From Polytrichum commune (Eukaryota; Streptophyta; Polytrichopsida; Polytrichales; Polytrichaceae), in contig OX485803.1 in the NCBI GenBank assembly GCA_950295325.1, forward strand, positions 42,733,554 to 42,797,553: a DNA stretch of 64,000 bases. Direction: 5' to 3'. The translations under genes were made by a program, and so were the position numbers. Shown here one piece after another: positions 14,918 to 61,166 of the stretch. A model generated the notes under the pieces. It was not told the origin of the DNA, did no database searches, and saw only the letters and a program-made list of their open reading frames with translations. Every line of letters begins with the position of its first letter. Position 1 is the stretch's first letter.

Positions 14918-14922
14918 AGCCT
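14918..14922. repeat. Target-site duplication, left side
   Basis: AGCCT lies immediately outside the left end and recurs at 24784-24788. If the final A of the right LTR is counted as LTR, the duplication is the 4-bp GCCT. Either reading joins the two outer flanks as one former target. Confidence 0.6.
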
Positions 14923-15363
14923 TGTCGTGTAAACTAAGTTTCTCTCTCCAAACTTAAGAAACTAAAATGTCTCCTTACAAAGCTTAAGAAACTCTAAAAT
15001 TCACACACAAGAGTCAAGCTATCTCTCACTCCACGAAGGGAGAATCCAAGAGTGCAAGTGGTGGAGAAAGAATGCAAAGGCTTTACTCATAATCTACTAC
15101 ACCATAGCCATGAGAAAGCAACAACAAGCTCTCTCTCTCTCAAAACACACTCACAAGACTTGACTTGACAACAATGGCAAGTCAAGAGGCCTTCCTCTCC
15201 ATACAACCCCAATCCTATGTGGAGTTCATCCATGGAGTGGATGAACAACTAACTAGGACTCCCAATGGAGTCCGTTATTCATCCCAACACACATGGGCTC
15301 CTAGTGGAGTCCATTTACTCCTAAATTGACGTGACTTAGCCCCCGATGTTACCTCACGTGACA
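14923..15363 (-). repeat. Left LTR (3' LTR of the element)
   Basis: This 441-bp copy starts TGTCGTG and ends CACGTGACA on the plus strand, so in the element's orientation it runs TGTCACGTGAGG to CACGACA, with TG/CA ends and a G-box (CACGTG) at its very start. Positions 14937-15363 match 24358-24784 without gaps and with about four differences. The 17-bp sequence TTGTCGTGTAAACTAAG, which overlaps the outer end (14922-14938), recurs just inside the inner end (15365-15381). A polypurine tract is expected immediately inside but is not seen. Confidence 0.88.
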
Positions 15364-15796
15364 GTTGTCGTGTAAACTAAGATCGTTAAACACAACAGAT
15401 CGAGTGTTGTTGTCAACATCAATTAGCAAAATAAAATAGCAAACTAAAATGCTAAACAACCACCTCTTCAAGTGCCCCCACTAGCAGATAAGGAGCCCCT
15501 CCAATCGGCTAGGAACAAACACACTCATCGGTAGAGTTGTTGAACATGATGAAGTTGTTGCTACATCTATACATATTTAATTGGGTAGTAGTAATCAAAG
15601 GAATTAAACTCGTGATTGACAAAGCAATCCAAGAACTGTAGGCTGGGTGCAATGTGAGCCCCATCCTTAATCGCCTTCAACAATTAATGTTGAATTCTTA
15701 GATAACTCTTTCAATGTGGTCTTAATTCCATAAAATTTCCAACCAACTAAATAACAACTTCGCTACTAAAACATGAGGTAAACATCCACAAAATTC
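15364..15796 (-). other. 3' untranslated part of the retroelement
   Basis: Between the stop after the PHD finger and the 3' LTR. It is AT-rich with no coding signal. It contains the second copy of TTGTCGTGTAAACTAAG (15365-15381) next to the LTR. The purine tract expected just upstream of the 3' LTR is not evident. Confidence 0.6.
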
Positions 15797-15982
15797 TCAA
15801 TCATGACCATTAACGGCCACGGAATGAGAGGCTTTCCAACAACGAGGACAAACCCAATTGCCAGAAGGAAGAGTCAAAATGGGAGGTGTCAAATATGCCA
15901 TGTGCCATCCACGTTGACATTGGTCGCACAATAACATTGTTGCAGCTCCTTTCTTCTCTCCACAAACATAACAAGGGAGATC
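15797..15982 (-). pseudogene. PHD finger at the C-terminus of the integrase polyprotein
   Basis: After the shifted integrase C-terminus (ending ELAVVP) and a TAG at 15983-15985, the same frame encodes a C4HC3-type PHD finger from 15973 to 15839: CYVCGEKKGAATML, then LLCDQCQRGWHM, then LPSGNWVCPRC, and TGA at 15797-15799. Seven of eight zinc ligands are present; the sixth position, normally Cys after HMA, is Tyr (TAT; one G-to-A change from TGT). PHD fingers read histone H3 tails, so the domain could steer integration to particular chromatin. In this copy it is unreachable without suppressing the shift and the stop, and the lost ligand may weaken zinc binding. Confidence 0.85.
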
Positions 15983-16119
15983 CTATGGTACAACCGCCAA
16001 CTCGGAATGCACAGAGCCGTCGATGGGAAGGTGACATGGAGCACAATTCTTTGAATGCTCACGACATTCCCGTCCATCCTTGCCTTCAAGCAATAATATA
16101 CCACTTGGCAAGACATCTT

Positions 16120-17262
16120 TTACCCGCAAAATCGTGCGTCCAGCCTTGACATCCAATGTCGTAGGCGCCTCCTGTTGCAAGTAAACATAATCCCCTTGGA
16201 AAATCTACGAACCTGAGGTCGATAAGCTCCACTGCGGATCCGGGCATACCGTAATGTATCACGATGTTGAGCAATATTTAAGTTCTCCATAGCCATAGGC
16301 ATGGCCTTTTGGAAGAATGTTGCTCGGTCATGAAGACATTGAGCCCAAACATCTGGATCATCCAAGTTTACCACGGGAGCCAATTTCTCTCGCACCGAGC
16401 TAGGTAAAATTGGTTCCCGTCCATACAAGAGTTGGTAAGGACTATAGGATGCCAAAGATGCTTGCCTGCTGAAACGATAACCCATTGCTATCCATGGTAA
16501 CATCAAGTCCCAATCGCGATGGTTGCCATGAAGCAATCCATACTTCCGCAAACCGCGCTTAACTGTCTGAACAACTCGTTCAGCTAAACCATCTGCCTCA
16601 GGGTGATATCTAGAAGTTGTCCGATGATCAATCAAAGCCTTGGTACACAAAGCCTCGAAAGATCCAAGGAATTCTCTCCCTTGATCCGTCAACACCTCTG
16701 CAGGTGCTCCAAACCGTGCCAAAACTCGATCAAGAAATGCCATAGCCGCCAATTCTGAGGAATTTTGGGGAAGAGCCACGAGTTCAATCCACTTACTAAA
16801 ATGCTCCACCATCACAAGCACATACTTGGAACCACGTGGAGTGATAGTAAGCGGTCCGGCAAAATCCAAAGACCAACAATATCCCAAACCCATAATAGGT
16901 AAAGGCTGAAGTTGAGGTGACAGAGTATTAAAACTTGACCTGACCCGGTCACATACTTCACACCAAGAAACATAAGTGGCAACCTGTTGATACATACCAG
17001 TCCAGCAATATTGGTTGCGCAACATAGAGTGCGTCCTTCGCACTCCAAAATGTCCAAGCTCCTCGTGCACTTGCCGCACCAAAGAAACTCTTTGATCTGG
17101 CATTGGAACGATGCGCCTCGTTCCGTTCGGCCACATACGAAATAACAAGCTGTTTGCCCAACGAAACCTTGTTATCCGGTGACTAACTCTATCTCGCTCC
17201 ATAGCAGATAGTCTAAGAGGAAATATCCCTTGTTGAAGTTTGTGCAAGACCGCCTGGTCTTC
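16120..17262 (-). CDS. int: Integrase of the retroelement, frameshifted near its C-terminus
   Basis: Same frame as RT, beyond a TGA. An HHCC zinc-binding N-terminus is visible (ELGHFGVRRTH and WCEVCDRV), then the DDE core: SLDFAGPL, VLTDQGREFLGS and HPEADGLAERVVQTVKRGL, with the second Asp and Glu spaced as in DD35E integrases. It would insert the cDNA. At about 16190-16195, in a GGGG run, the frame is lost: the C-terminal SH3-like part (VYLQQEAPTTLDVKAGRTI, then VKDVLPSGILLLEG) reads on in the next frame from about 16190 to 15986, so the frame ending at 16120 has a false C-terminus. A single-base loss, or a base-call error, in the G run explains this. Confidence 0.92.
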   Translation of the reverse strand, partial: EDQAVLHKLQQGIFPLRLSAMERDRVSHRITRFRWANSLLFRMWPNGTRRIVPMPDQRVSLVRQVHEELGHFGVRRTHSMLRNQYCWTGMYQQVATYVSWCEVCDRVRSSFNTLSPQLQPLPIMGLGYCWSLDFAGPLTITPRGSKYVLVMVEHFSKWIELVALPQNSSELAAMAFLDRVLARFGAPAEVLTDQGREFLGSFEALCTKALIDHRTTSRYHPEADGLAERVVQTVKRGLRKYGLLHGNHRDWDLMLPWIAMGYRFSRQASLASYSPYQLLYGREPILPSSVREKLAPVVNLDDPDVWAQCLHDRATFFQKAMPMAMENLNIAQHRDTLRYARIRSGAYRPQVRRFSKGIMFTCNRRRLRHWMSRLDARFCG

Positions 17263-18702
17263 TCACACATCACTAACAACGAGAGATTTATCAACCTCCT
17301 CATCTTGTTCTTCTACAAGGATCTCAGCAGCCAATCCCAACATCATTGTGAGATATGTGGCAGCATGCCAACCTGGCACTGCCTCCCTATCACAATCTCC
17401 ATGCCACCTGGCTCCAGTTAAATCCTCATCTGAAGGACTTGGATTGCGAGACAATCCGTCTGCATCCAAGTTGGCAATTCCTGCTCGGTGAACAACTTCA
17501 AAATCATATTCTTGAAGTAACAATGCCCACCTAGCAAGTTTCCCGGTGAATTTATCTGATTCCATAAGCCATTTTAAAGGCTGATGATCAATCACCAAAG
17601 TAAACTTTTGCCCATACAAATAAGGTAAAAAATGTGCAATGGCCCAAACGGCTGCCAAGGCCTCGCCTTCATAAGAAGAATAATTAGATTCAGCACTATT
17701 ATTGCTTCTAGATGCATAAGCCACCACATATTTTTTTCCCTCTTCATCTTTCTGTGTCAATACCGCTCCCAATCCCACTGCACTCCAATCCGTGTGCAAT
17801 TGAAAAGCTCTAGACACATCCGGGCGTCGAAGCACTGGCGCTGAACCGAGCCTCTGCTTCAATGTATCAAATGCATGTTGTTGTTCCCGACTCCAAATCC
17901 ATGGTTGGTCTTTCCCCGTGAGAATGGTAAGAGGTTTGGCAATCAAACTAAAGTTTTTGACAAGCCTCCTATAATAATTTGACAATCCTAGAAATGCACG
18001 AAGCCGTGGTACATCACTAGGTGTGGGAATTTTGTACAAAGCATCCACCTTCGCCTGTTGCACACCAAGACCGCCAGGAACAATCATGTGGCCTAAATAG
18101 GGCAATTGATCATGGAAAAACTTACATTTTCCATGATGTAAACGGAGTCCCCACCGTTGAAGTCGTTCAAATACCGCTTGCAAATGTCTCACATGATCCT
18201 GTGGACTATTACTAAAGATGATAACATCATCAATGTAACATCTAGCAAACGGCAAACCAGCCAATAATTGGTCCATCACCCGTTGAAATTCAGCCGGTGC
18301 ATTCTTAAGACCAAATGGCAGAAATTTCCAATGATAAAGTTGATCCTTGCCATCTTTATCAATTCCCCAAAATGCGGTCTTCACCCGATCACCCAACAAC
18401 AAAGGTAATTGGTGATAACCAGACCTCAAATCCAGAGTGCTGAAGATTCTAGAAAATCCCAGTGCATTAAACAACTCCTCCGGCATCGGCATTGGATATC
18501 GATCCGACTTGGTCTTGCGGTTGACTGGACGATAATCACCACACATCCGTTTTTCCGTCCAGTTGCCAAAGATATTCTTCTTTGACGGCATAACCGTGGT
18601 ACAAGCATACTCTCCATTGGAGAGTTCAATCAATTCCGTTGCCAATAACTCTTGACATCGAGTTTGAACACCCAACCTTTCAGAGGTACTAAGTCTGTAC
18701 GG
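17263..18702 (-). CDS. pol: Reverse transcriptase-RNase H of the retroelement
   Basis: About 480 residues. Visible RT blocks: RMCGDYRPVNRKT, FSTLDLRSGYHQLPL (first catalytic Asp), LPFGLKNAPAEFQRVMD, and CYIDDVIIFS, the YxDD active site, around 18225-18240. Then FLGLSNYYRRLVKNF and the connection, and an RNase H with HTDWSAVGLGAVL (Asp), YEGEALAAVWA (Glu) and VIDHQPLKWL (Asp). It would copy element RNA to cDNA and remove the RNA strand. It has no start codon of its own (frame after TAG 18703) and ends at TGA 17263-17265, after which the same frame continues into integrase. Confidence 0.95.
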   Translation of the reverse strand, partial: PYRLSTSERLGVQTRCQELLATELIELSNGEYACTTVMPSKKNIFGNWTEKRMCGDYRPVNRKTKSDRYPMPMPEELFNALGFSRIFSTLDLRSGYHQLPLLLGDRVKTAFWGIDKDGKDQLYHWKFLPFGLKNAPAEFQRVMDQLLAGLPFARCYIDDVIIFSNSPQDHVRHLQAVFERLQRWGLRLHHGKCKFFHDQLPYLGHMIVPGGLGVQQAKVDALYKIPTPSDVPRLRAFLGLSNYYRRLVKNFSLIAKPLTILTGKDQPWIWSREQQHAFDTLKQRLGSAPVLRRPDVSRAFQLHTDWSAVGLGAVLTQKDEEGKKYVVAYASRSNNSAESNYSSYEGEALAAVWAIAHFLPYLYGQKFTLVIDHQPLKWLMESDKFTGKLARWALLLQEYDFEVVHRAGIANLDADGLSRNPSPSDEDLTGARWHGDCDREAVPGWHAATYLTMMLGLAAEILVEEQDEEVDKSLVVSDV

Positions 18703-18939
18703 CTATCTGAAAATAGGGTGGTCGTCCTCGAGTTGAATACGAACAGGTTTACCTTTATATCCTTCAAGATCATGAAGACTAAAGGCAAAACAATTATGGT
18801 AAGAGCAAATAAATGCCCGTACCTTTCGTGCTTCGGCACCAGTAAGCTTTGGCCCCACTTCAATTGGCCAATCGTCAAACTCCGTGGTTTCCTTTTTCAT
18901 AGAAGGATTGCCACTTGGTGCCAGCACAGCCTGTGATCG
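18703..18939 (-). CDS. N-terminal extension of the reverse transcriptase
   Basis: Same frame, between TAG 18940 and TAG 18703. It ends GKPVRIQLEDDHPIFR, and the next frame resumes with PYRLS; together these match the conserved entry into gypsy RT (short strand, HPIxR..PYR). The segment CSYHNCFAFSLHDLEGYKG is the usual pre-RT region of this class. The TAG therefore lies inside the conserved start of the RT domain, where a basic residue is usual. Confidence 0.75.
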   Translation of the reverse strand, partial: RSQAVLAPSGNPSMKKETTEFDDWPIEVGPKLTGAEARKVRAFICSYHNCFAFSLHDLEGYKGKPVRIQLEDDHPIFR

Positions 18940-19281
18940 CTAGTCCGTGGAGAGGGCAACACCTTTGCCCCCATCATCTGTACTTGAATCCAAATGCGTA
19001 TCCTCTCCACTACAATCAGTTTGTGTAGCTAAATAGCTACCCACATATGAAGTATCACCAAAAAATAGAAGTGGAAAAATTTTATGGGCCTCCAACTTCC
19101 CAAACTCTTGGGCCAAAGCCGAAAAAACACGTTGGGCTCGAAGCTCTTCCGCAACATGAAGTTTTAAAGGAAATAATCCCTCGGTGTCATTGACCTCAAT
19201 GTGATCCTTGGATTGCGGCTCCATTGCCCCTTGACCATTGTTCTCTGCCCTCAGAGTAAGCAATTGGTCATCCATACGTTG
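18940..19281 (-). CDS. Linker segment between methyltransferase and RT, no recognised domain
   Basis: Same frame as the methyltransferase, separated only by a TAA (19282-19284), and ended by TAG at 18940-18942. About 113 residues with an ATG at 19275. It is acidic and polar at both ends, with a central LHVAEELRAQRVFSALAQEF and a hydrophobic FPLLFFGDTSYVGSYL. I do not recognise a domain. It may be a spacer with cleavage sites or a lineage-specific domain of this family. Confidence 0.6.
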   Translation of the reverse strand, partial: QRMDDQLLTLRAENNGQGAMEPQSKDHIEVNDTEGLFPLKLHVAEELRAQRVFSALAQEFGKLEAHKIFPLLFFGDTSYVGSYLATQTDCSGEDTHLDSSTDDGGKGVALSTD

Positions 19282-20373
19282 TTAAGCAACAAGACAAATT
19301 CCAATTATCCACACAATGCTGTTAAGATCCATAGCTTGCCCCAATAGGAAACGTCTCTGACCTTCCTCAAGCCCGTGAGCAGCCGTGGTACCTGTAAGAA
19401 AACCCATGGCGCGTTCCCGCTCATCTGCCGTAGGCTCCTCATAAGTTTGGGATTTTGAATCCCAAACCATGCCAGGTCCACGAGATCGAAATGCAAAAGA
19501 CTGTGGATATGTCACAAAAGTAGGTAGTGCACCTTTCGGAATGCCCACCTTATTAAGTAATGCAAATGGCAAGGTGTCATCCTTGGTAACTGCCAAGGAA
19601 ACACGATGATCATCTAAAATGTCATCCACCTTGCGATCCATAAGGCGGGGAATGCGGGCAATCGCCGCTGAAAGCACCCGAGGTGATACCAAGTTGGTCA
19701 AAAACCAACGAGGCCGATGAGCAAAGGATCCCAAAGATGCAGCATCCAGAAATGTTGGAGTATCCAGAATTTGGTTAATGTACTCACCATCCTTCACCAC
19801 TTTGTGCCGGGTATCACCCAATAATGGTACATTTTCGAAAATGTACCCTGGCGGAGTTGATTGGTGGGTAAACCACCATTGCGTCAATTGCGTCAAATCC
19901 GCAAACAAACTAGACCTAGGATCATCCAATCCCTGGCCAGTTCCTGCCCGCGAATTGCCTTGACAAGGCCATCCTGCAAGAATCAAATCCACGTGGCCCA
20001 ACCTTCTCAAATCCTCATCACTAATCATAGTGACATCTTGAGGAAGTTGACCACAACATCCATGAATGGCAGAGGCTGACAATTGTGCGGGGTATCTCAA
20101 CAACAATTGTTGGATGTGGTGTCGGACGGCTCTGTTGGCTGCATACCCATTGTCCACATGAATATATCCCCAAACTGTAATTCCAGCTTCCAACACTGCC
20201 GCCAAACCTGTGCCAATGCCTCCAAAGATCTCCACAAGGACAATACCTTCAGGTGATGGTTGCCAACGAATGGGTTGAGCAAAAGAAAATGAGGATAAAG
20301 TTGGAGGTGCCTCTCCAAGCTCCAAATCCGCTACAATGTGTCGACAATGGTCGGATAACTCCTTAGGAGTTCG
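19282..20373 (-). CDS. C5 cytosine DNA methyltransferase domain inside pol
   Basis: An uninterrupted frame of about 360 residues between the protease and the RT. Numbering from the TTG at 20325 it shows: motif I VEIFGGIGTG (31-40, SAM binding), an acidic HVDNG after the second strand (56-60), motif IV AGWPCQGNS with catalytic Cys121 (codon 19963-19965), motif VI FENV (163-166), motif VIII-like HRPRWF (203-208), a variable stretch (210-300) where the target-recognition region should lie, then ERERAMGF and LLGQAMDLNSI near the C-terminus (motifs IX-X). It would transfer methyl from SAM to cytosine C5. No BAH, PWWP, UBA or chromodomain is seen. Subfamily is unresolved: PCQ is DNMT1/CMT/bacterial-like and the C-terminus is DNMT3-like. 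There is no ATG; it shares the frame of pro and RT and was probably released from a polyprotein. Confidence 0.92.
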   Translation of the reverse strand, partial: RTPKELSDHCRHIVADLELGEAPPTLSSFSFAQPIRWQPSPEGIVLVEIFGGIGTGLAAVLEAGITVWGYIHVDNGYAANRAVRHHIQQLLLRYPAQLSASAIHGCCGQLPQDVTMISDEDLRRLGHVDLILAGWPCQGNSRAGTGQGLDDPRSSLFADLTQLTQWWFTHQSTPPGYIFENVPLLGDTRHKVVKDGEYINQILDTPTFLDAASLGSFAHRPRWFLTNLVSPRVLSAAIARIPRLMDRKVDDILDDHRVSLAVTKDDTLPFALLNKVGIPKGALPTFVTYPQSFAFRSRGPGMVWDSKSQTYEEPTADERERAMGFLTGTTAAHGLEEGQRRFLLGQAMDLNSIVWIIGICLVA

Positions 20374-20412
20374 CTATGGTGGAGGTGGATCCTTGAAATG
20401 TCGAGCATGAAT

Positions 20413-21825
20413 TTAAAAAGATGGTAAAAATTGTTGTTCTGCCGCATTACAAGTGTAGTCCATTGTTTCCTCCAATAAAACTGGAGCACAAGGCAAATCT
20501 GCAACTGAACCGCTGCAACCAAACATTGCCTCCGCAACCATAGTCATAGCAGTGGCTGCAAATGTGACGGGAATAAATACCTTCCTCCCATCTCCAGTGG
20601 ACCATCCCGGTCTAATCCATGCCTCTTCCGTCCAATTATCCAAACCAAAGCCAAGTGGGTAAAGAGCTTGCTGACCAACAAGTATATCATAGTTGGTAGC
20701 ATTAGTAACAACACACTTCATTGACAAATGAGTGTAAGTAGGCCCTGCCCCCACATGAAAAATCAAACGTAGAGGTGCCTTGGTGTAACCTGTTGCACGT
20801 TCAGTGCCCCCTACTGAAGTCACAATAGTGAATGGACAAGGATCCAAGCTTGCTGGCGTCAATCCAAGACTGTCAGCAAGTCCTTTGCCAATCATAACCG
20901 GTTGAGCACCGGAATCCATCATAACTCTCAGTGGTGTAGCACGGATAGTGGGCATATCCGTGCGTGAAACGACAAACAAAGATTTGTCGTTCATCAGCCG
21001 TACAACTCCAGGTTGCAAATTATGCCGTTCGCGAGCAGGCCTTGCAGAAATGTCTGCAAGATATGCCGCTCCCGACGCATAATTCGAAAATGACGTATCC
21101 ACTGCTGAAATTGATGCTGGAGGAATATCAGTTTGCTTACCAAAAGCAATGATCGCCGCATCCGCAAGACTCGCTCGCAAATTGGCTAAGTCCTCCACCT
21201 CCTCAGCCACAGGTACGTCAACCACAGCTTGGGATACTTGAAGGGATGGCAAATCCGCCTTACCTTCTAACATTCTCCCAGCTAAATGAAAAACTGCAGC
21301 AGGCTTGAAATTCGAAGCCATAAACTCCGAACCCGAGAAAATTGACATATGGAGAATTTTATATGCCAATGCCTGCGTAACATCCTTCGAGATGGAATCC
21401 CCATCTCTCAAAGGTACAGGGTTTTTAGCCCCAACAACAGTAGTGTCTACCAATCCAAATGAAAGAGGTAAACGTGTTTGACCAATTTGATCAGCTGGTC
21501 CGGCATGGCGAGGATGTAGCATCTCGTTGCTACCACCACTCGTGGAAGCCACCGCATCTGCCAATGTTTGTGAGCGGGTAGAAGCCGCCGCCACCACCTC
21601 TCCAGCTGCTCCAAACATATACATGTCCGAACCCGAGGTGCCACCACCCACATGCGGCTCATAAATTTGAGCAAAAGATGCAGAAGATTTGAGCTTTTGC
21701 TCAAGCTCTGCCACCTTAGCCCTCAAGACTCTGCTCCCTTGGAGACTTTCCAGTGACATAACTGGCATGCCGCATCTTCGGATGAAGTTGGAAACAATGA
21801 TCCACATCGTGATTAGTGCCACCAC
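20413..21825 (-). CDS. pro: Retropepsin (aspartic protease) segment of pol
   Basis: This 470-residue frame starts inside the 3' end of gag. Its first part (VLRAKVAELEQKL) looks like a short coiled coil that would normally follow the gag knuckles, then a long Ala/Ser-rich region, then a retropepsin-like domain with the active-site motif MMDSGAQPVMI (DSG at 20908-20916). The downstream YDILVGQQALYPLGF matches the second conserved block of gypsy proteases. It would cleave the Gag-Pol polyprotein. The frame ends at TAA (20413-20415), but the same frame continues past it and past a TAG at 20374-20376 into the methyltransferase, so pro and methyltransferase were probably one polyprotein. Confidence 0.85.
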   Translation of the reverse strand: MVALITMWIIVSNFIRRCGMPVMSLESLQGSRVLRAKVAELEQKLKSSASFAQIYEPHVGGGTSGSDMYMFGAAGEVVAAASTRSQTLADAVASTSGGSNEMLHPRHAGPADQIGQTRLPLSFGLVDTTVVGAKNPVPLRDGDSISKDVTQALAYKILHMSIFSGSEFMASNFKPAAVFHLAGRMLEGKADLPSLQVSQAVVDVPVAEEVEDLANLRASLADAAIIAFGKQTDIPPASISAVDTSFSNYASGAAYLADISARPARERHNLQPGVVRLMNDKSLFVVSRTDMPTIRATPLRVMMDSGAQPVMIGKGLADSLGLTPASLDPCPFTIVTSVGGTERATGYTKAPLRLIFHVGAGPTYTHLSMKCVVTNATNYDILVGQQALYPLGFGLDNWTEEAWIRPGWSTGDGRKVFIPVTFAATAMTMVAEAMFGCSGSVADLPCAPVLLEETMDYTCNAAEQQFLPSF

Positions 21826-23038
21826 AATGGCTACATTTCAATTGTCTCTTCTTAGAATTGTCCCCTGCCCTTACTGGTTCCATCTTTTGTTTTAATTTTC
21901 CCAAAGGCTGAGTTTTCTTCTTCTTAGGACAATTGGGATCATTCTTCGAATGACCAGCTTCTCCACAACCCCAACAATGCAAAATCTTTTGCTCCTTGAC
22001 GGGTTGAGTCTCAGCTAAACTACTAGTAGCTGTGACAATTCTTCTTGGTTTCGGACTCTCTGTCATCCAAGATACCATATCCGTGGCATCATGTTGGCAA
22101 AGAGCCCGATCACATCTCTCAACCACGGCAAACGCTTGTGCAAGCGTAGCTCGGCCCTCGTAGTCGAGGATAATCCGAGGTGATGCCAACTCAAGTAGCC
22201 GCTTGTCAATCTTAGACAAAAAGATTTTAACAAGCTGACTCTCAGCAAAAACACCTCCCGACTCCACCGCAAATCGCGGGAGTCGCGTATACATGGTCCG
22301 TGGAGTATCATCCTTCTTTCGGCGAAAATCCTGGATGCGTTGCATCTGGTCTCGCCGAAACCCACCATACTCCACTTCCAAATGTGCGACAAATTCAGTA
22401 AGGGGATTAAACAGAGGTGGTGGACCAACAGCCGTCAATGCTGCCTGTGTAGCACGTGCCACCCGTGAAAGGGTTGCCGTGCTACTGCTAGCCACCATTG
22501 GCCCAAGTGCCAGTTCCGTGTCCTTAGACTCCGCCGGCGATTCCTCCTCCTTTAAGGTGGGTGGAGCTAAGGTAGCAACCGCCCCATCCTTAAGGGCTGA
22601 AATGAGCTCAACCCGAGCCTCCCAATACTGCTCCACCTCCCGAAGTTGTCGCTGATGACCCTCCGTCCAGCGTTCATAAGTTTGGAGTGCCTCATACTCC
22701 AAATGCTGAGGCAGAAGTTCAAAGGCATACCAATCATTGAAATTGGAAGACCTTTGGCGTTTCTCCTTGATCCAGGTACGAAACCGGAGTTTCCAATCGG
22801 GCAAGGAAATGCCCCCAGCTCGACCTGAAAACCGATCACGCACTGAATTGTGGCGATCATCCTCCATTTCGTCGAACGTGCCGACACTCCAAATCCGAAG
22901 CCTACTAGTAGTGTCCAACGCCGAAATAGGCTCAAAAGCCTCGTTGGTATCTACCTCTGGCTCAAGATTTGTGGTATGCACGTCCTCCAAGTAATATGGT
23001 GATGGAGATCGATAATATCGGCTCCTAGTTTGCACCAT
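21716..23038 (-). CDS. gag: Gag polyprotein of the retroelement
   Basis: This 440-residue open frame starts with a real ATG and is the first protein after the leader. It forms the particle and binds element RNA. Residues about 75-130 (WKLRFRTWIKEK to YERWTEG) and 215-330 resemble a retrotransposon gag core. Two zinc knuckles follow: a variant C-x2-C-x4-H-x6-C at residues 355-370 (CWGCGEAGH) and a canonical C-x2-C-x4-H-x4-C at 402-415 (CSHCGGTNH), separated by a lysine-rich basic stretch. The frame ends just after the second knuckle. The protease frame overlaps its last 110 bases and is shifted by +1 (or -2), so translation into pro needs a programmed shift or a small indel has broken the join. 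Confidence 0.9.
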   Translation of the reverse strand: MVQTRSRYYRSPSPYYLEDVHTTNLEPEVDTNEAFEPISALDTTSRLRIWSVGTFDEMEDDRHNSVRDRFSGRAGGISLPDWKLRFRTWIKEKRQRSSNFNDWYAFELLPQHLEYEALQTYERWTEGHQRQLREVEQYWEARVELISALKDGAVATLAPPTLKEEESPAESKDTELALGPMVASSSTATLSRVARATQAALTAVGPPPLFNPLTEFVAHLEVEYGGFRRDQMQRIQDFRRKKDDTPRTMYTRLPRFAVESGGVFAESQLVKIFLSKIDKRLLELASPRIILDYEGRATLAQAFAVVERCDRALCQHDATDMVSWMTESPKPRRIVTATSSLAETQPVKEQKILHCWGCGEAGHSKNDPNCPKKKKTQPLGKLKQKMEPVRAGDNSKKRQLKCSHCGGTNHDVDHCFQLHPKMRHASYVTGKSPREQSLEG

Positions 23039-23189
23039 AAAATAATCACTTGAGTACCTGCAACTATCTACAAGGTAATGGCAACCTGCACCTGTTGCGG
23101 GCTATCTAAATGGCAATCCCTTGCCAAATGCCAAGTGTTTATGCCCCCAGAATTCCAAAATTGTGCAAAGGTTTGAGATTGGTAATTAA

Positions 23190-23630
23190 AATGAAAAATC
23201 AGCGTTGAAAAGGCTCATTTCCAAGGTGATTATGGACTCCAATCAACAAACTAAGTGCACCAATGGACTCCTAGGCAGATTTCACACAAATTAGGCTCAA
23301 ATTTCACTCCGTTCGGAGTTAATTTGCTCCCAAAAACAAAAATCAGCGTTGAAATTAATAATTTCAGCAATGATTTTGAATTCCAATCAACAATCCAATT
23401 ACACCATTGGATTCCTTGGCAAATTTCACACAAGATAGGCTCAAATTTCACTCCGTTCGGAGTTAATTTGCTCCCAAAAACAAAAATCAGCGTTGAAATT
23501 GCTAATTTCAGCAATGATTTTGAATTCCAATCAACAATCCAATTACACCATTGGATTCCTTGGCAAATTTCACACAAGATAGGCTCAAATTTCACTCCAA
23601 TCGGAGCTAGTATGCCCCCAAATTTGAACC
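23190..23630. repeat. 144-bp tandem repeat in the retroelement leader
   Basis: The landmark AATCAGCGTTGAAA occurs at about 23197, 23341 and 23485, a period of exactly 144 bp over about three units; the last two are almost identical. The array lies between the 5' LTR and gag. Because 144 is a multiple of three, both strands show long open frames here, but they are repeat artefacts and not genes. Tandem repeats in an untranslated leader could matter for packaging, translation or regulation; none of that is shown by the sequence. Confidence 0.9.
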
Positions 23631-24001
23631 TCAAAGTGTGTGAGAAGGGGATGCCAAGTTTGAAAGGTGAAAGTAAAAATGTAAAAATAATAAAAATAAA
23701 AATAAAGTAATAATAAAGTAAAAGTAAAAAGTAAAAATAAGTGTTTTATTTTTGTTGTTGAAATCAAAAAAAATAAAAAATAAAAAAAATAAAAACAAAG
23801 GTAAGGTTAACTTACCTTTAAGACAAGCCAACCAGGCTTGGCCAGCGTCCGCCCGCCCGTGGGCCTGGCCGACGCCCGCCCGCCTGGCCCGCTCCGTTGG
23901 CGCCTGGGCCCGGCCTGCGTACGCCCGCCCCGGCCCCGGGATCTGCCGCCGCCCGGTGCAGAATTGGAGCTCCAAGAGTGTCCGTGGAGCTCCGGAGCTC
24001 C

Positions 24002-24032
<31 letters not shown>

Positions 24033-24357
24033 GGATTTTAAGTTTGGTTTGTGTTTGTTTGTAAATTAAAAAAAAATTAAACTTTGCTTTTACAAATTGC
24101 AAGCAAGAATGATGTGACTTGAGAATCTTGAGACCAAATGGAATCTCAAGATTCAACCATCAACACTTGAAGAAAACACAAAGAGACAACAAAAGAAAAA
24201 TGGGAAGATTTCTCTCAAAATCTTCTTGAGGGTTGCAAGAAATGACAAACTAAGCTTTCAAACACTTGTATCACTCATTTACTCTCAATACTGGGCCATT
24301 CTAGCTCATAAATACAACCAAAAATGAAAAATTTGAACAATTGTTGCCAAGTATGAG
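23631..24357. other. Low-complexity leader of the retroelement
   Basis: Between the 144-bp array and the 5' LTR lie an AT-rich stretch of AAAATAAAA-type repeats (23675-23810), a strongly GC-rich block of about 130 bp (23835-23965, CCCGCC/GGCC motifs) and a run of about 30 A (24001-24030; poly-T in the element's orientation). The GC-rich block stands out sharply in this AT-rich window and could be CpG-dense. No start codon context or coding region is seen before gag. Confidence 0.7.
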
Positions 24358-24784
24358 AGTTTCTCTCTCCAAGCTTAAGAAACTAAAATGTCTCCTTACA
24401 AAGCTTAAGAAACTCTAAAATTCACACACAAGAGTCAAGCTATCTCTCACTCCACGAAGGGAGAATCCAAGAGTGCAAGTGGTGGAGAAAGAATGCAAAG
24501 GCTTTACTCATAATCTACTACACCATAGCCATGAGAAAGCAACAACAAGCTCTCTCTCTCTCAAAACACACTCACAAGACTTGACTTGACAACAATGGCA
24601 AGTCAAGAGGCCTTCCTCTCCATACAACCCCAATCCTATGTGGAGTTCATCCATGGAGTGGATGAACAACTAACTAGGACTCCCAATGGAGTCCGTTACT
24701 CATCCCAACACACATGGACTCCTAGTGGAGTCCATTTACTCCTAAATTGACGTGACTTAGCCCCCGATGTCACCTCACGTGACA
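24358..24784 (-). repeat. Right LTR (5' LTR of the element)
   Basis: Gap-free match to 14937-15363 with about four differences, all transitions. This LTR should carry the element promoter. It has the same G-box CACGTG at its U3 start and several short inverted GGACTCC/GGAGTCC motifs, but I see no convincing TATA box. The terminal 14 bp present at the outer end of the left LTR are replaced here by weakly similar sequence, so the true inner boundary may lie near 24344. The adjacent internal sequence does not resemble the common initiator-Met primer site. Confidence 0.85.
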
Positions 24785-24788
24785 GCCT
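24784..24788. repeat. Target-site duplication, right side
   Basis: AGCCT matches 14918-14922. The flanks left of 14918 and right of 24788 are both pyrimidine-rich, as expected for one interrupted sequence. Confidence 0.6.
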
Positions 24789-59156: not shown

Positions 59157-60287
59157 TCATAGCTCTACAGCGCAAGAGATTTGTGCAACTCCGACGAAGT
59201 CTTCAGCCACAGGACAAGCCTCCCACCTACCTTTCCTACGCTTGGAGGCAGGAAAAGTGTAAATCAAGGTTCGGTACTGTTCATCATCTTCATTCCAGGG
59301 GCCGGTGACAGCAAGAGCCTTACCAAGCCCGGTAGCACAAGCAAGGGAAGAGATTCCTGTCTCCCCCTCGGGCAAGAAATCCAACAGCTCCCATCGATTC
59401 CTGTCCTCACAGTACACCAAAACCTGTCGATCGTGAAAGGCCACAAGGCGATCCGCCACAGCTACAATGGTGCCAGGCCGCACAGTGCACATGTTCTCCA
59501 CCATATTCCAACGTCCCTCTTGCTCGTTCCAAAACTCAGCACTCGTCACAAAATTACACTCCACCGAAGAGTCGTAACCGCTAATGGCATAAAACTTCCC
59601 GTTCAAAGTTGCACCGATGCACTCGTCACGCAAAACAGCCAAGTTAGGTAAAGCCTCCCAAGCATTTGTGTCCAGGTTGTAAACCTCCGCGGAAGGTAAG
59701 GCTGTTTTGGTGTTATCATGGCCTCCTGCAACGAACACACGGCTTCCCACCGCGGAACATGCGAAGAACGATCTTGTCGTAGGCATATCGGCACCCCGCT
59801 CCCAAGACCATTTGCAAAAGTCGAATACATACACCCTTCGAAGAGTTTCCCATGTGGCAGGGTGCCATCCACCGATGATGACGAGCTTGCCTTCACCTGC
59901 TGCGAACCGGCAGAAGAGAGGGACCCCTAGGTCTTTGAAATCGGGGATGGGAGGAAGCCTATCCCATTTGCGATCATCTTGCTCGTTCAAGACGCTGATG
60001 AAGTAAACCGGGTGTGATTGTGTCTCGGAGCGATCCGGTGTCGCTTGTAAGATGCACAGGAAATGGCCTGTCGTGCCTTCCCGTTTGCGTTGGGAGTAGT
60101 ATTCGGGGCTGGATACCAGCTCCTTCCACTTGCGTGACACTCCGTGAAGTAGGCCATGTGAGTGTGGGGAGACTCGAAGTAAACACTCCCTGGCTACGTC
60201 GTCTGGGAGTGATGGTATGTATGGTTGCGATACTAACTGCCGTTTCTTGCTGCCAATGATGTTATTCTTACTTTGCTCCTCCGCCAT
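59157..60287 (-). CDS. F-box/kelch-repeat protein (KFB/KMD-like)
   Basis: A single-exon gene of 376 residues. I chose the ATG at 60285-60287 (MAEEQSKNN) because the longer frame begins with an (Arg-Glu)n run that is only the translated (GA)n leader. Residues about 23-70 form the F-box (IPSLPDDVARECLLRVSPHS, then SRKWKELVSSPEYYSQRK). Kelch repeats follow: LVIIGGWHPATW, VFVAGGHDN with SAEVYNLDTNAWEALP, and FYAISGYDSS with SAEFWNEQEGRWN. The pattern RSFFACSAVGSRVFVAGGHD is typical of the plant KFB01/20/39/50 (KMD) group, which in Arabidopsis are SCF E3 substrate adaptors for phenylalanine ammonia-lyase and type-B response regulators. Length and the VAQISCAVEL C-terminus fit the family. The substrate here is not known. 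Confidence 0.95.
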   Translation of the reverse strand: MAEEQSKNNIIGSKKRQLVSQPYIPSLPDDVARECLLRVSPHSHGLLHGVSRKWKELVSSPEYYSQRKREGTTGHFLCILQATPDRSETQSHPVYFISVLNEQDDRKWDRLPPIPDFKDLGVPLFCRFAAGEGKLVIIGGWHPATWETLRRVYVFDFCKWSWERGADMPTTRSFFACSAVGSRVFVAGGHDNTKTALPSAEVYNLDTNAWEALPNLAVLRDECIGATLNGKFYAISGYDSSVECNFVTSAEFWNEQEGRWNMVENMCTVRPGTIVAVADRLVAFHDRQVLVYCEDRNRWELLDFLPEGETGISSLACATGLGKALAVTGPWNEDDEQYRTLIYTFPASKRRKGRWEACPVAEDFVGVAQISCAVEL

Positions 60288-60320
60288 AGCCACCGACTTA
60301 TACCCCCCGCTACCCACTCC

Positions 60321-60322
<2 letters not shown>

Positions 60323-60386
<64 letters not shown>
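60323..60386 (-). promoter_or_regulatory. (AG)32 tract in the leader of the F-box/kelch gene
   Basis: A pure CT run of 64 bases on the plus strand, so (AG)n in the gene's orientation, from about 36 to 100 bases upstream of the ATG. GA tracts in plant leaders and promoters are known binding sites for BPC/GAGA-type factors. It could equally be a neutral microsatellite. Length variation here would change the leader but not the protein. Confidence 0.55.
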
Positions 60387-60387
<1 letters not shown>

Positions 60388-60390
<3 letters not shown>

Positions 60391-61166
60391 AAGATTCTCT
60401 CTGTGACAGACTCCTCCCCTCGCAACAAGGGAAACCACCTACACTCTTGAACCTACCATGCTCAACTGAGTGAGCCGACTTCATACCCTGCGATACCCAT
60501 CACAAAAAACTCCTCAAACCATCCGGGACCAAGAAATTGAACACCTCCATAGAACCTCGACTCCTGCATTCCAATCACTCCTCGACCATCAACATCGCCA
60601 CTCTCTCTTCAACATCCACATGAAGGTAGATGATGTCACACTTCTCACTGCATCACCATAGATCGGGGAGTTACTACAACAAAATTATAGAGTTGCAGGG
60701 AGCTCCTCCTCCAGTCCTCCAAACGGTAGCCTGGCGATGACGACGTCCTCAAACCTTCGGGATACCCAAAAACCTCTACAAAATCACTCCTGCGACTTTC
60801 TTCAGAATCCACAACTGTTGATGATGCTAGACTTGCTTGTTTGTCCGGATCGAACCAAATGCATCATCGACGTACTTACACGCGTTTCCGGCATTCCTTC
60901 AAACATTTAGCACGGGCCCATGATACTCTGCCACAAGCTTTTTTCAGGAGCTGAGATCGATTGTGCCCTTCCAAATCACACATATATTGAGTTCACTGCA
61001 GAGTCATCATATTGTTTATGTACTTAATGCCTCAAGTGAGGAAGGTACATTTGGATCGTCGATTTTTTTTCTAGCCATGTGGCTGGATGCGATGTGATCT
61101 ATTGTGCTCGTGATTAAGATTAACTTAAGTTGTCTGTAGTTGTATTATACGATGGATCACGAAGCA
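60388..61166. other. Upstream region of the F-box/kelch gene
   Basis: This should hold the promoter. It is richer in C/T and more complex than the surrounding repeats up to about 60950. I see no certain TATA box and no other coding region. Confidence 0.4.

What the first reader, a model, noticed from the sequence alone, without database searches (positions are those of the whole stretch)
19282..20373. DNA cytosine methyltransferase built into a gypsy retrotransposon polyprotein
An uninterrupted frame with C5-methyltransferase motifs I, IV (GWPCQG with catalytic Cys), VI (FENV), VIII-like and X-like sits between protease and RT, in the same frame as both, inside an element bounded by LTRs and a target duplication. 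It is cargo, not a neighbour. Retroelement-borne methyltransferases have been reported in charophyte algae and dinoflagellates, with the idea that the element methylates its own cDNA. This element may extend the phenomenon to another plant lineage or represent the same capture. The methyltransferase is in better shape than the surrounding pol.
Basis: partly seen in the sequence, partly recalled or inferred. Interest (0 to 1): 0.92.

Follow-up and report, generated by a model that had tools for sequence, protein, structure and literature searches.

The report
Moss retrotransposon carrying DNA methyltransferase
A jumping gene that has multiplied in what is probably a moss genome carries its own DNA-methylating enzyme, fused to its capsid and protease proteins and followed by what looks like a leaky stop signal, a kind of element so far described in algae and dinoflagellates.

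Summary
On the minus strand, 19282-20373 is a DNMT3-type cytosine methyltransferase domain (MT): Pfam 5e-11, model pLDDT 93.5, all 50 listed structure matches DNMT3. It lies in a Ty3/gypsy-type element (14923-24784) flanked by a 4-bp duplication, GCCT. This copy is a damaged member of a large, recently active family in a 408-Mb genome, probably a moss: 112 scored MT matches (lower bound), 56 without a stop.

Better-kept copies show more. ORF1 is one gag-protease-MT frame ending in UAG-CAR-YYA, the plant-virus leaky stop (24 of 29 distinct copies). ORF2 holds RT, RNase H, integrase and a PHD finger. The repeats are A-coding-B-A-B rather than plain LTRs, in two diverged subfamilies, with 4-bp duplications in 13 of 13 readable copies.

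Closest known: KnitGypsy-Dnmt3 of Klebsormidium (2018), with gypsy domains and the same repeat plan. Relatives occur in liverworts, Sphagnum and Klebsormidium; one shared capture is likely but unproven (p-AU 0.44 for the alternative). Likely working, inferred: MT is made with Gag, packaged, and methylates the element's cDNA. New variant of a known kind.

The parts
14919..14922 (.). target-site duplication GCCT, left copy
24785..24788 (.). target-site duplication GCCT, right copy
14923..24784 (-). whole element, TG...CA ends; its 5' end is at the right
24358..24784 (-). repeat A1 (5' end of the element)
14937..15363 (-). repeat A2, 4 of 428 bases different from A1 over the aligned stretch
15366..15472 (-). 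repeat B1, about 107 bp, inside A2
14923..14938 (-). remnant of B2 (full length about 107 bp in other copies)
21716..23038 (-). gag: no Pfam match; named from position and a CX2CX4HX4C zinc knuckle read by eye; here in another frame than protease
20413..21825 (-). aspartic protease region (Pfam match 23.2 bits, just under the 24.3 cut-off)
19282..20373 (-). DNMT3-type cytosine methyltransferase domain (MT)
18940..18942 (-). ORF1 terminator TAG; context here CGA TCA, in most other copies CAR YYA
17263..18675 (-). reverse transcriptase and RNase H
16120..17247 (-). integrase (H2C2 zinc finger and rve core); the frame is lost near its 3' end in this copy
15839..15973 (-). PHD finger, C-terminal to integrase; out of frame and behind a stop in this copy

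Best explanation
A Ty3/gypsy-type retrotransposon of a bryophyte (probably a moss) that carries a DNMT3-type cytosine methyltransferase as a regular domain. Shown: in better-kept copies ORF1 is one gag-protease-MT frame; ORF2 (RT, RNase H, integrase, PHD finger) follows in the same frame after one stop, usually UAG in a CAR-YYA context; the ends are A-coding-B-A-B; insertions leave 4-bp duplications; the family is multi-copy and recently active. Inferred: most ribosomes stop at the UAG and make Gag-protease-MT, a minority read through and add RT-integrase-PHD, so the MT is made in capsid-protein amounts. It is packaged, freed by the protease, and methylates the double-stranded cDNA (probably at CG) before integration, so that a new copy arrives already marked. 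The internal B-A junction lets reverse transcription restore both ends. My shares: identity 0.97, leaky stop 0.85, own cDNA as main substrate 0.5.
For: DNMT3 kinship in sequence and fold. 112 scored MT matches of 590 candidates, 56 without a stop, 15 of these in a 1386-codon frame. Gag, protease and MT in one frame in 10 of 10 loci. TAG CAR YYA at the ORF1 end in 25 of 30 loci, 24 of 29 distinct copies, in both subfamilies. ORF2 domains and PHD finger in one copy of each subfamily. A-B-A-B with 4-bp duplications in 13 of 13 readable copies. A1 and A2 identical in 5 of 9. 74 of the 90 scored RT matches have an MT match just upstream. Between-subfamily dN/dS of MT about 0.1. Published: SymbioDIRS MT domains methylate CG in yeast (PMC5890265).
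Against: No activity was measured here; the KnitGypsy MT gave no methylation in yeast, which its authors call inconclusive. Within subfamily I the MT has dN/dS 0.69 against 0.28 for RT, so recent constraint is weak. No CG depletion: CpG o/e 0.65 in the element, 0.49 in the rest of the window. The window copy and L051 lack the exact stop motif. 16 of 90 RT matches have no listed MT and could not be read. dS between subfamilies is saturated.
Confidence: 0.6

Rival explanations
1. The MT acts mainly on the host: after the particle opens it methylates chromatin at or near the insertion site, shifting silencing around the new copy rather than marking cDNA in the particle.
For: The integrase ORF ends in a PHD finger, a chromatin-reader fold; DNMT3 enzymes act on nuclear DNA (recalled).
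Against: The MT lies on the gag side of the stop, in a different product from the PHD finger unless readthrough occurs; nothing here links it to host DNA.
Confidence: 0.2
2. The MT is a passenger: captured long ago, kept because the polyprotein needs the segment for folding, spacing or nucleic-acid binding, with catalysis now of little use.
For: dN/dS 0.69 for MT within subfamily I; non-singleton changes there 8 replacement, 6 silent.
Against: Catalytic motifs are nearly invariant across 31 and 39 aligned relatives; dN/dS 0.28 in subfamily II and about 0.1 between subfamilies.
Confidence: 0.15
3. The MT methylates the element's RNA, or the RNA strand of its hybrids, rather than DNA.
For: It is co-made with Gag, which binds RNA; the 2018 authors raised RNA methylation for SymbioLINE.
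Against: Kinship is to DNMT3, far ahead of the tRNA methyltransferase DNMT2 (2.8e-24 against 4.5e-9).
Confidence: 0.08
4. A host DNMT gene or another insert happens to lie nested in this one copy.
For: In this copy stops lie on both sides of the MT.
Against: Same order and similar spacing in many inserts, one gag-protease-MT frame in 10 of 10 loci; fused proteins in other species.
Confidence: 0.01

Closest known systems
KnitGypsy-Dnmt3 of Klebsormidium nitens (PMC5890265)
   Same: Gypsy domain composition, DNMT3-type MT inside the coding region, and repeats arranged like those of DIRS elements (text and Fig. 4c legend).
   Different: There the MT is described in the Pol ORF; here it closes a gag-protease ORF before a UAG-CAR-YYA stop, and ORF2 ends in a PHD finger. 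The words gag, readthrough, PHD and moss do not occur in the main text of that paper. Host is a bryophyte; common descent of the MT is not proven.
SymbioDIRS-Dnmt3 and SymbioLINE-Dnmt of Symbiodinium (PMC5890265)
   Same: Retrotransposon-borne DNMT; SymbioDIRS has the A-coding-B-A-B repeats.
   Different: DIRS with tyrosine recombinase, or LINE; here a DDE integrase and 4-bp duplications.
Leaky UAG-CAR-YYA of tobacco mosaic virus and other plant viruses (PMC2754532)
   Same: UAG followed by CAR YYA, called essential for readthrough there.
   Different: Here it separates gag-protease-MT from RT-integrase in a retrotransposon. The paper mentions gypsy elements of rice among readthrough cases; SIRE1 as a further case is recalled. 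Readthrough here is unmeasured.
Chromoviruses and Ginger1-9 (PHD-bearing transposase, PMC2836005)
   Same: A chromatin-reader domain behind a gypsy-like integrase (Ginger1-9; chromodomains of chromoviruses recalled).
   Different: A PHD finger rather than a chromodomain, in an element that also carries a DNA methyltransferase.

Membership tests
KnitGypsy-Dnmt3-like elements | gypsy-type RT, RNase H and rve integrase | tested here: met
KnitGypsy-Dnmt3-like elements | DNMT3-type MT in the element's coding region | tested here: met
KnitGypsy-Dnmt3-like elements | DIRS-like A-coding-B-A-B repeats | tested here: met
   13 of 13 copies with both ends readable, of 16 examined
KnitGypsy-Dnmt3-like elements | MT in the same ORF as RT (Pol) | tested here: not met
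   A stop separates MT and RT; joined only if read through
KnitGypsy-Dnmt3-like elements | MT shares descent with Klebsormidium MTs | tested here: inconclusive
   One clade in the best trees, but the alternative has p-AU 0.444
DNMT3 | sequence and fold closest to DNMT3, with catalytic PCQ, ENV and AHR motifs | tested here: met
DNMT3 | de novo cytosine methylation | not testable with these tools
   needs an enzyme assay
Ty3/gypsy LTR elements | DDE integrase downstream of RT and RNase H | tested here: met
Ty3/gypsy LTR elements | TG...CA ends and a short target duplication | tested here: met
   4 bp in 13 of 13 readable copies
Ty3/gypsy LTR elements | two equal terminal repeats | tested here: not met
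   A is at the 5' end, A-B at the 3' end
DIRS elements | tyrosine recombinase instead of DDE integrase | tested here: not met
   rve found, no recombinase family among the Pfam matches of ORF1 and ORF2 in either subfamily
type I leaky stop | UAG CAR YYA | tested here: met
   25 of 30 loci, 24 of 29 distinct copies; not in the window copy itself
type I leaky stop | measured readthrough | not testable with these tools
   needs a reporter assay

The most novel reading that the evidence does not exclude
The element carries a writer and a reader of silent chromatin. A DNMT3 domain made in capsid amounts pre-methylates the cDNA inside the particle, and a PHD finger on the integrase steers insertion into chromatin with unmethylated H3K4. 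Together they rebuild in one retrotransposon the pairing of DNMT3 with an H3K4me0 sensor (recalled for host DNMT3 and its ADD domain), so the element plants copies already wearing the host's own mark.
Probability: 0.25. Interest if true: 0.88.

Novelty: new variant of a known kind. Interest (0 to 1): 0.66.

Why it matters
Retrotransposons are usual targets of DNA methylation, so an element that makes its own methyltransferase asks what methylation does for a parasite. The published cases I found are algal and dinoflagellate. A bryophyte family with a hundred or more copies, open frames and inserts with identical repeats would make the question testable in a land plant whose methylome can be read. 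The gag-side place of the enzyme and the leaky stop predict capsid-level dosage, and the PHD finger suggests chromatin-guided insertion. Split repeats on an element with a DDE integrase do not fit the textbook account of how LTR elements rebuild their ends.

Tried and rejected
Nested or neighbouring host gene: rejected. Simple LTR pair: rejected for A-B-A-B. MT as sole survivor of a decayed pol: true of this copy only. CG depletion as a trace of self-methylation: not seen. B as primer by matching the sequence after A1: a short match (CTTGA) in subfamily I has no counterpart in II, dropped. Relatives in viral contigs and genome contigs: 5 and 13 stretches hit a pattern, none confirmed. Host DNMT3 gene as outgroup: search did not complete; a host DRM-like gene was met instead (L027; named from its motif order). 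Host name: not established; the F-box/kelch gene has Sphagnum among its nearest named kin, seven contigs hold 406.1 of 407.8 Mb, and a search for a seven-chromosome moss genome named no host. So 'moss' is an inference.

Full report
What is there. The stretch 19282-20373 is open on the minus strand only and encodes 363 residues that match Pfam DNA_methylase (5.3e-11). A single-sequence search of solved structures puts DNMT3B/3A first (4.4e-5; 46 sequences at E up to 1). A profile of 31 relatives gives 57 matches at E up to 0.01: the best 29 are all named DNMT3, led by DNMT3A at 2.8e-24; then come 4onj (2.3e-13; that it is a DRM is recalled) and entries named DRM2 (1.1e-10), DNMT2-type (4.5e-9) and HhaI (about 1e-7). 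A model from 39 aligned sequences has pLDDT 93.5 and pTM 0.93, and all 50 listed Foldseek matches, of 205 at E up to 0.001, are DNMT3 entries.

The window copy. Protease, MT, RT/RNase H and integrase share one minus frame with stops between them; gag lies in another frame. The element runs 14923-24784 and is flanked by GCCT. The protease Pfam score is just below its cut-off, and gag has no Pfam match; I name gag from its position and a zinc knuckle.

The genome. The assembly holds 407.8 Mb in 64 contigs, seven of them 406.1 Mb. PF00145 gave 123 scored matches of 353 candidates. The MT protein gave 112 scored of 590, all at 85-100% identity; 56 have no stop in the match and 15 of those lie in a 1386-codon frame. 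The tool calls such counts lower bounds. A second subfamily is 55-69% identical in MT pieces and 71-88% in RT pieces.

Layout of better-kept copies. In 10 of 10 loci (six of subfamily I, four of II) gag, protease and MT share one frame. It measured 1386 codons in L049, the one locus there whose frame start was fetched and visible as such; L057 and the others were cut by the fetched edge or shorter. The frame ends 114 codons after the MT in subfamily I and 98 in II. A second frame follows, of 1045-1048 codons in four of ten loci (L050, L051, L055, L058) and shorter or broken in six. Pfam finds DNA_methylase in ORF1 of one copy of each subfamily; the protease match was below its cut-off in I and absent in II, where I rely on 50% identity to the window's protease region. 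ORF2 shows RVT_1, RNase H, H2C2, rve and a C-terminal PHD finger (7e-10 and 2.2e-10). In the window the PHD finger lies at 15839-15973, out of frame and behind a stop. Its nearest solved sequences are CHD4, PHF12 and PHF21A, with UHRF1 further down; that several of these read unmodified H3K4 is recalled.

The stop. At the ORF1 end 25 of 30 loci read TAG CAR YYA; L020 and L056 are one copy, so 24 of 29 distinct copies. The flanking codons differ between subfamilies. Misses: window TAG CGA TCA; L051 TAA in the same context; L013 nothing alike; L012 and L028 carry the motif displaced by indels. In six loci as stored, 4 of 406 TAGs are followed by CARYYA, which equals the number of those loci that lie on + and keep the site. 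PMC2754532 (passages) calls CAR YYA essential for readthrough of the TMV UAG and mentions gypsy elements of rice. Proteins P0001, P0002, P0003, P0005, P0006 and P0007 end at the matching place after the MT, so the terminator seems older than this genome's copies.

The ends. For subfamily I ten copies were fetched and the window added; nine of these eleven gave both ends, all with the order A1-coding-B1-A2-B2 and a 4-bp duplication at one fixed offset; L031/L032 and L045/L046 lacked one A repeat. The window's B2 is cut to about 16 bases, and L039/L040 has about 130 extra bases between A2 and B2. A1 and A2 are identical in 5 of 9. For subfamily II four of five pairs gave the same plan with A of 334-335 and B of 106 bases; the 4-bp duplications (CCAC, TATC, TGTC, CTCC) were read by eye in 4 of 4; L063/L064 showed no repeat. 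B1 and B2 match within each copy at 98-100%, which suggests they are renewed together. The legend of Fig. 4 in PMC5890265 says the same of the KnitGypsy repeats.

Relatives elsewhere. The MT search returned 129 proteins at E up to 1e-3, 120 listed. A profile search (89 at E up to 1e-5) added Marchantia MARPO_0008s0049, 961 aa, in which I read zinc knuckle, protease and MT, and fusions with Pfam RT (P0170, P0179), integrase (P0186) and protease (P0168, P0169). P0179 has RT and RNase H before the MT and P0186 has MT before integrase: a second domain order. In trees of 57 and 47 rows the retro-MT rows form one clade against partial human DNMT3A, the host DRM-like gene and a bacterial enzyme (UFBoot 92; SH-aLRT 95). 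Placing P0116 (K. nitens) and P0177 with the outgroups is not rejected (p-AU 0.444), long branches are flagged, and no host DNMT3 of a plant was in the tree.

Do close relatives lack the MT? The RT search gave 90 scored of 2474 candidates. Of these, 74 have a listed MT match within 2.5 kb upstream on the same strand. The other 16 could not be read, so MT-less copies are not excluded.

Selection. Nei-Gojobori ratios: MT within I 0.69 (36 pairs of 9 copies), within II 0.28 (15 pairs of 6), between 0.08-0.10 with dS saturated; RT 0.28, 0.22 and 0.05. Some copies held stops, which were skipped. Non-singleton changes in I: MT 8 replacement and 6 silent, RT 6 and 14. Long-term constraint is supported; recent constraint on the MT in subfamily I is weak. 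CpG o/e shows no depletion in the element.

Literature. Six searches aimed at DNMT-bearing retrotransposons listed no report of them in land plants; the library holds open-licence papers only. Searches aimed at readthrough, split repeats, PHD fingers and the host. Of PMC5890265 I saw parts 1-4 of 7 and passages; of PMC12344493, PMC6453930, PMC10952607, PMC9985172, PMC2754532, PMC6317226 and PMC2836005 passages only. [quoted passage not shown]

Verdict. Added here: a probable bryophyte host, copy number and youth, the gag-side position before a leaky-type UAG, the integrase-linked PHD finger, and the split-repeat plan with 4-bp duplications. What the enzyme does for the element remains inferred.

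Noticed in passing
window 23188-23619: Three tandem copies of a 144-bp unit (80-83% alike) in the leader between A1 and gag, near a GC-rich stretch and a long A run around 24002-24030.
   Followed up: no
P0179, P0186, P0191: MT relatives in another domain order: after RT-RNase H (P0179) or before integrase (P0186; P0191 looks alike); hosts unnamed.
   Followed up: partly
P0002: A protein filed as DNA cytosine methyltransferase of a Candidatus Obscuribacterales MAG is 74% identical to this MT; probably plant DNA in a bacterial bin.
   Followed up: no
G000 C3:7302807-7303892 and C3:7318270-7319355: Two MT copies with equal scores in opposite orientation about 15 kb apart, perhaps an inverted segmental duplication.
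   Followed up: no
L027 (G000 C2:4700606-4705459): A host gene with DRM-like reordered methyltransferase motifs in separate open stretches.
   Followed up: partly
window 59157-60428 (-): F-box/kelch gene, 94% identical to an unnamed ena protein, 51% to Sphagnum balticum over part of its length.
   Followed up: partly
B1-A2 junction; window 15364-15365: Between B's terminal CA and A's initial TG stand two bases (GC in the other copies printed, AC in the window), as if the element's two unprocessed ends were joined inside it.
   Followed up: no
L059-L062, L065-L068: All four subfamily II target duplications end in C, a possible site preference not seen in subfamily I.
   Followed up: no
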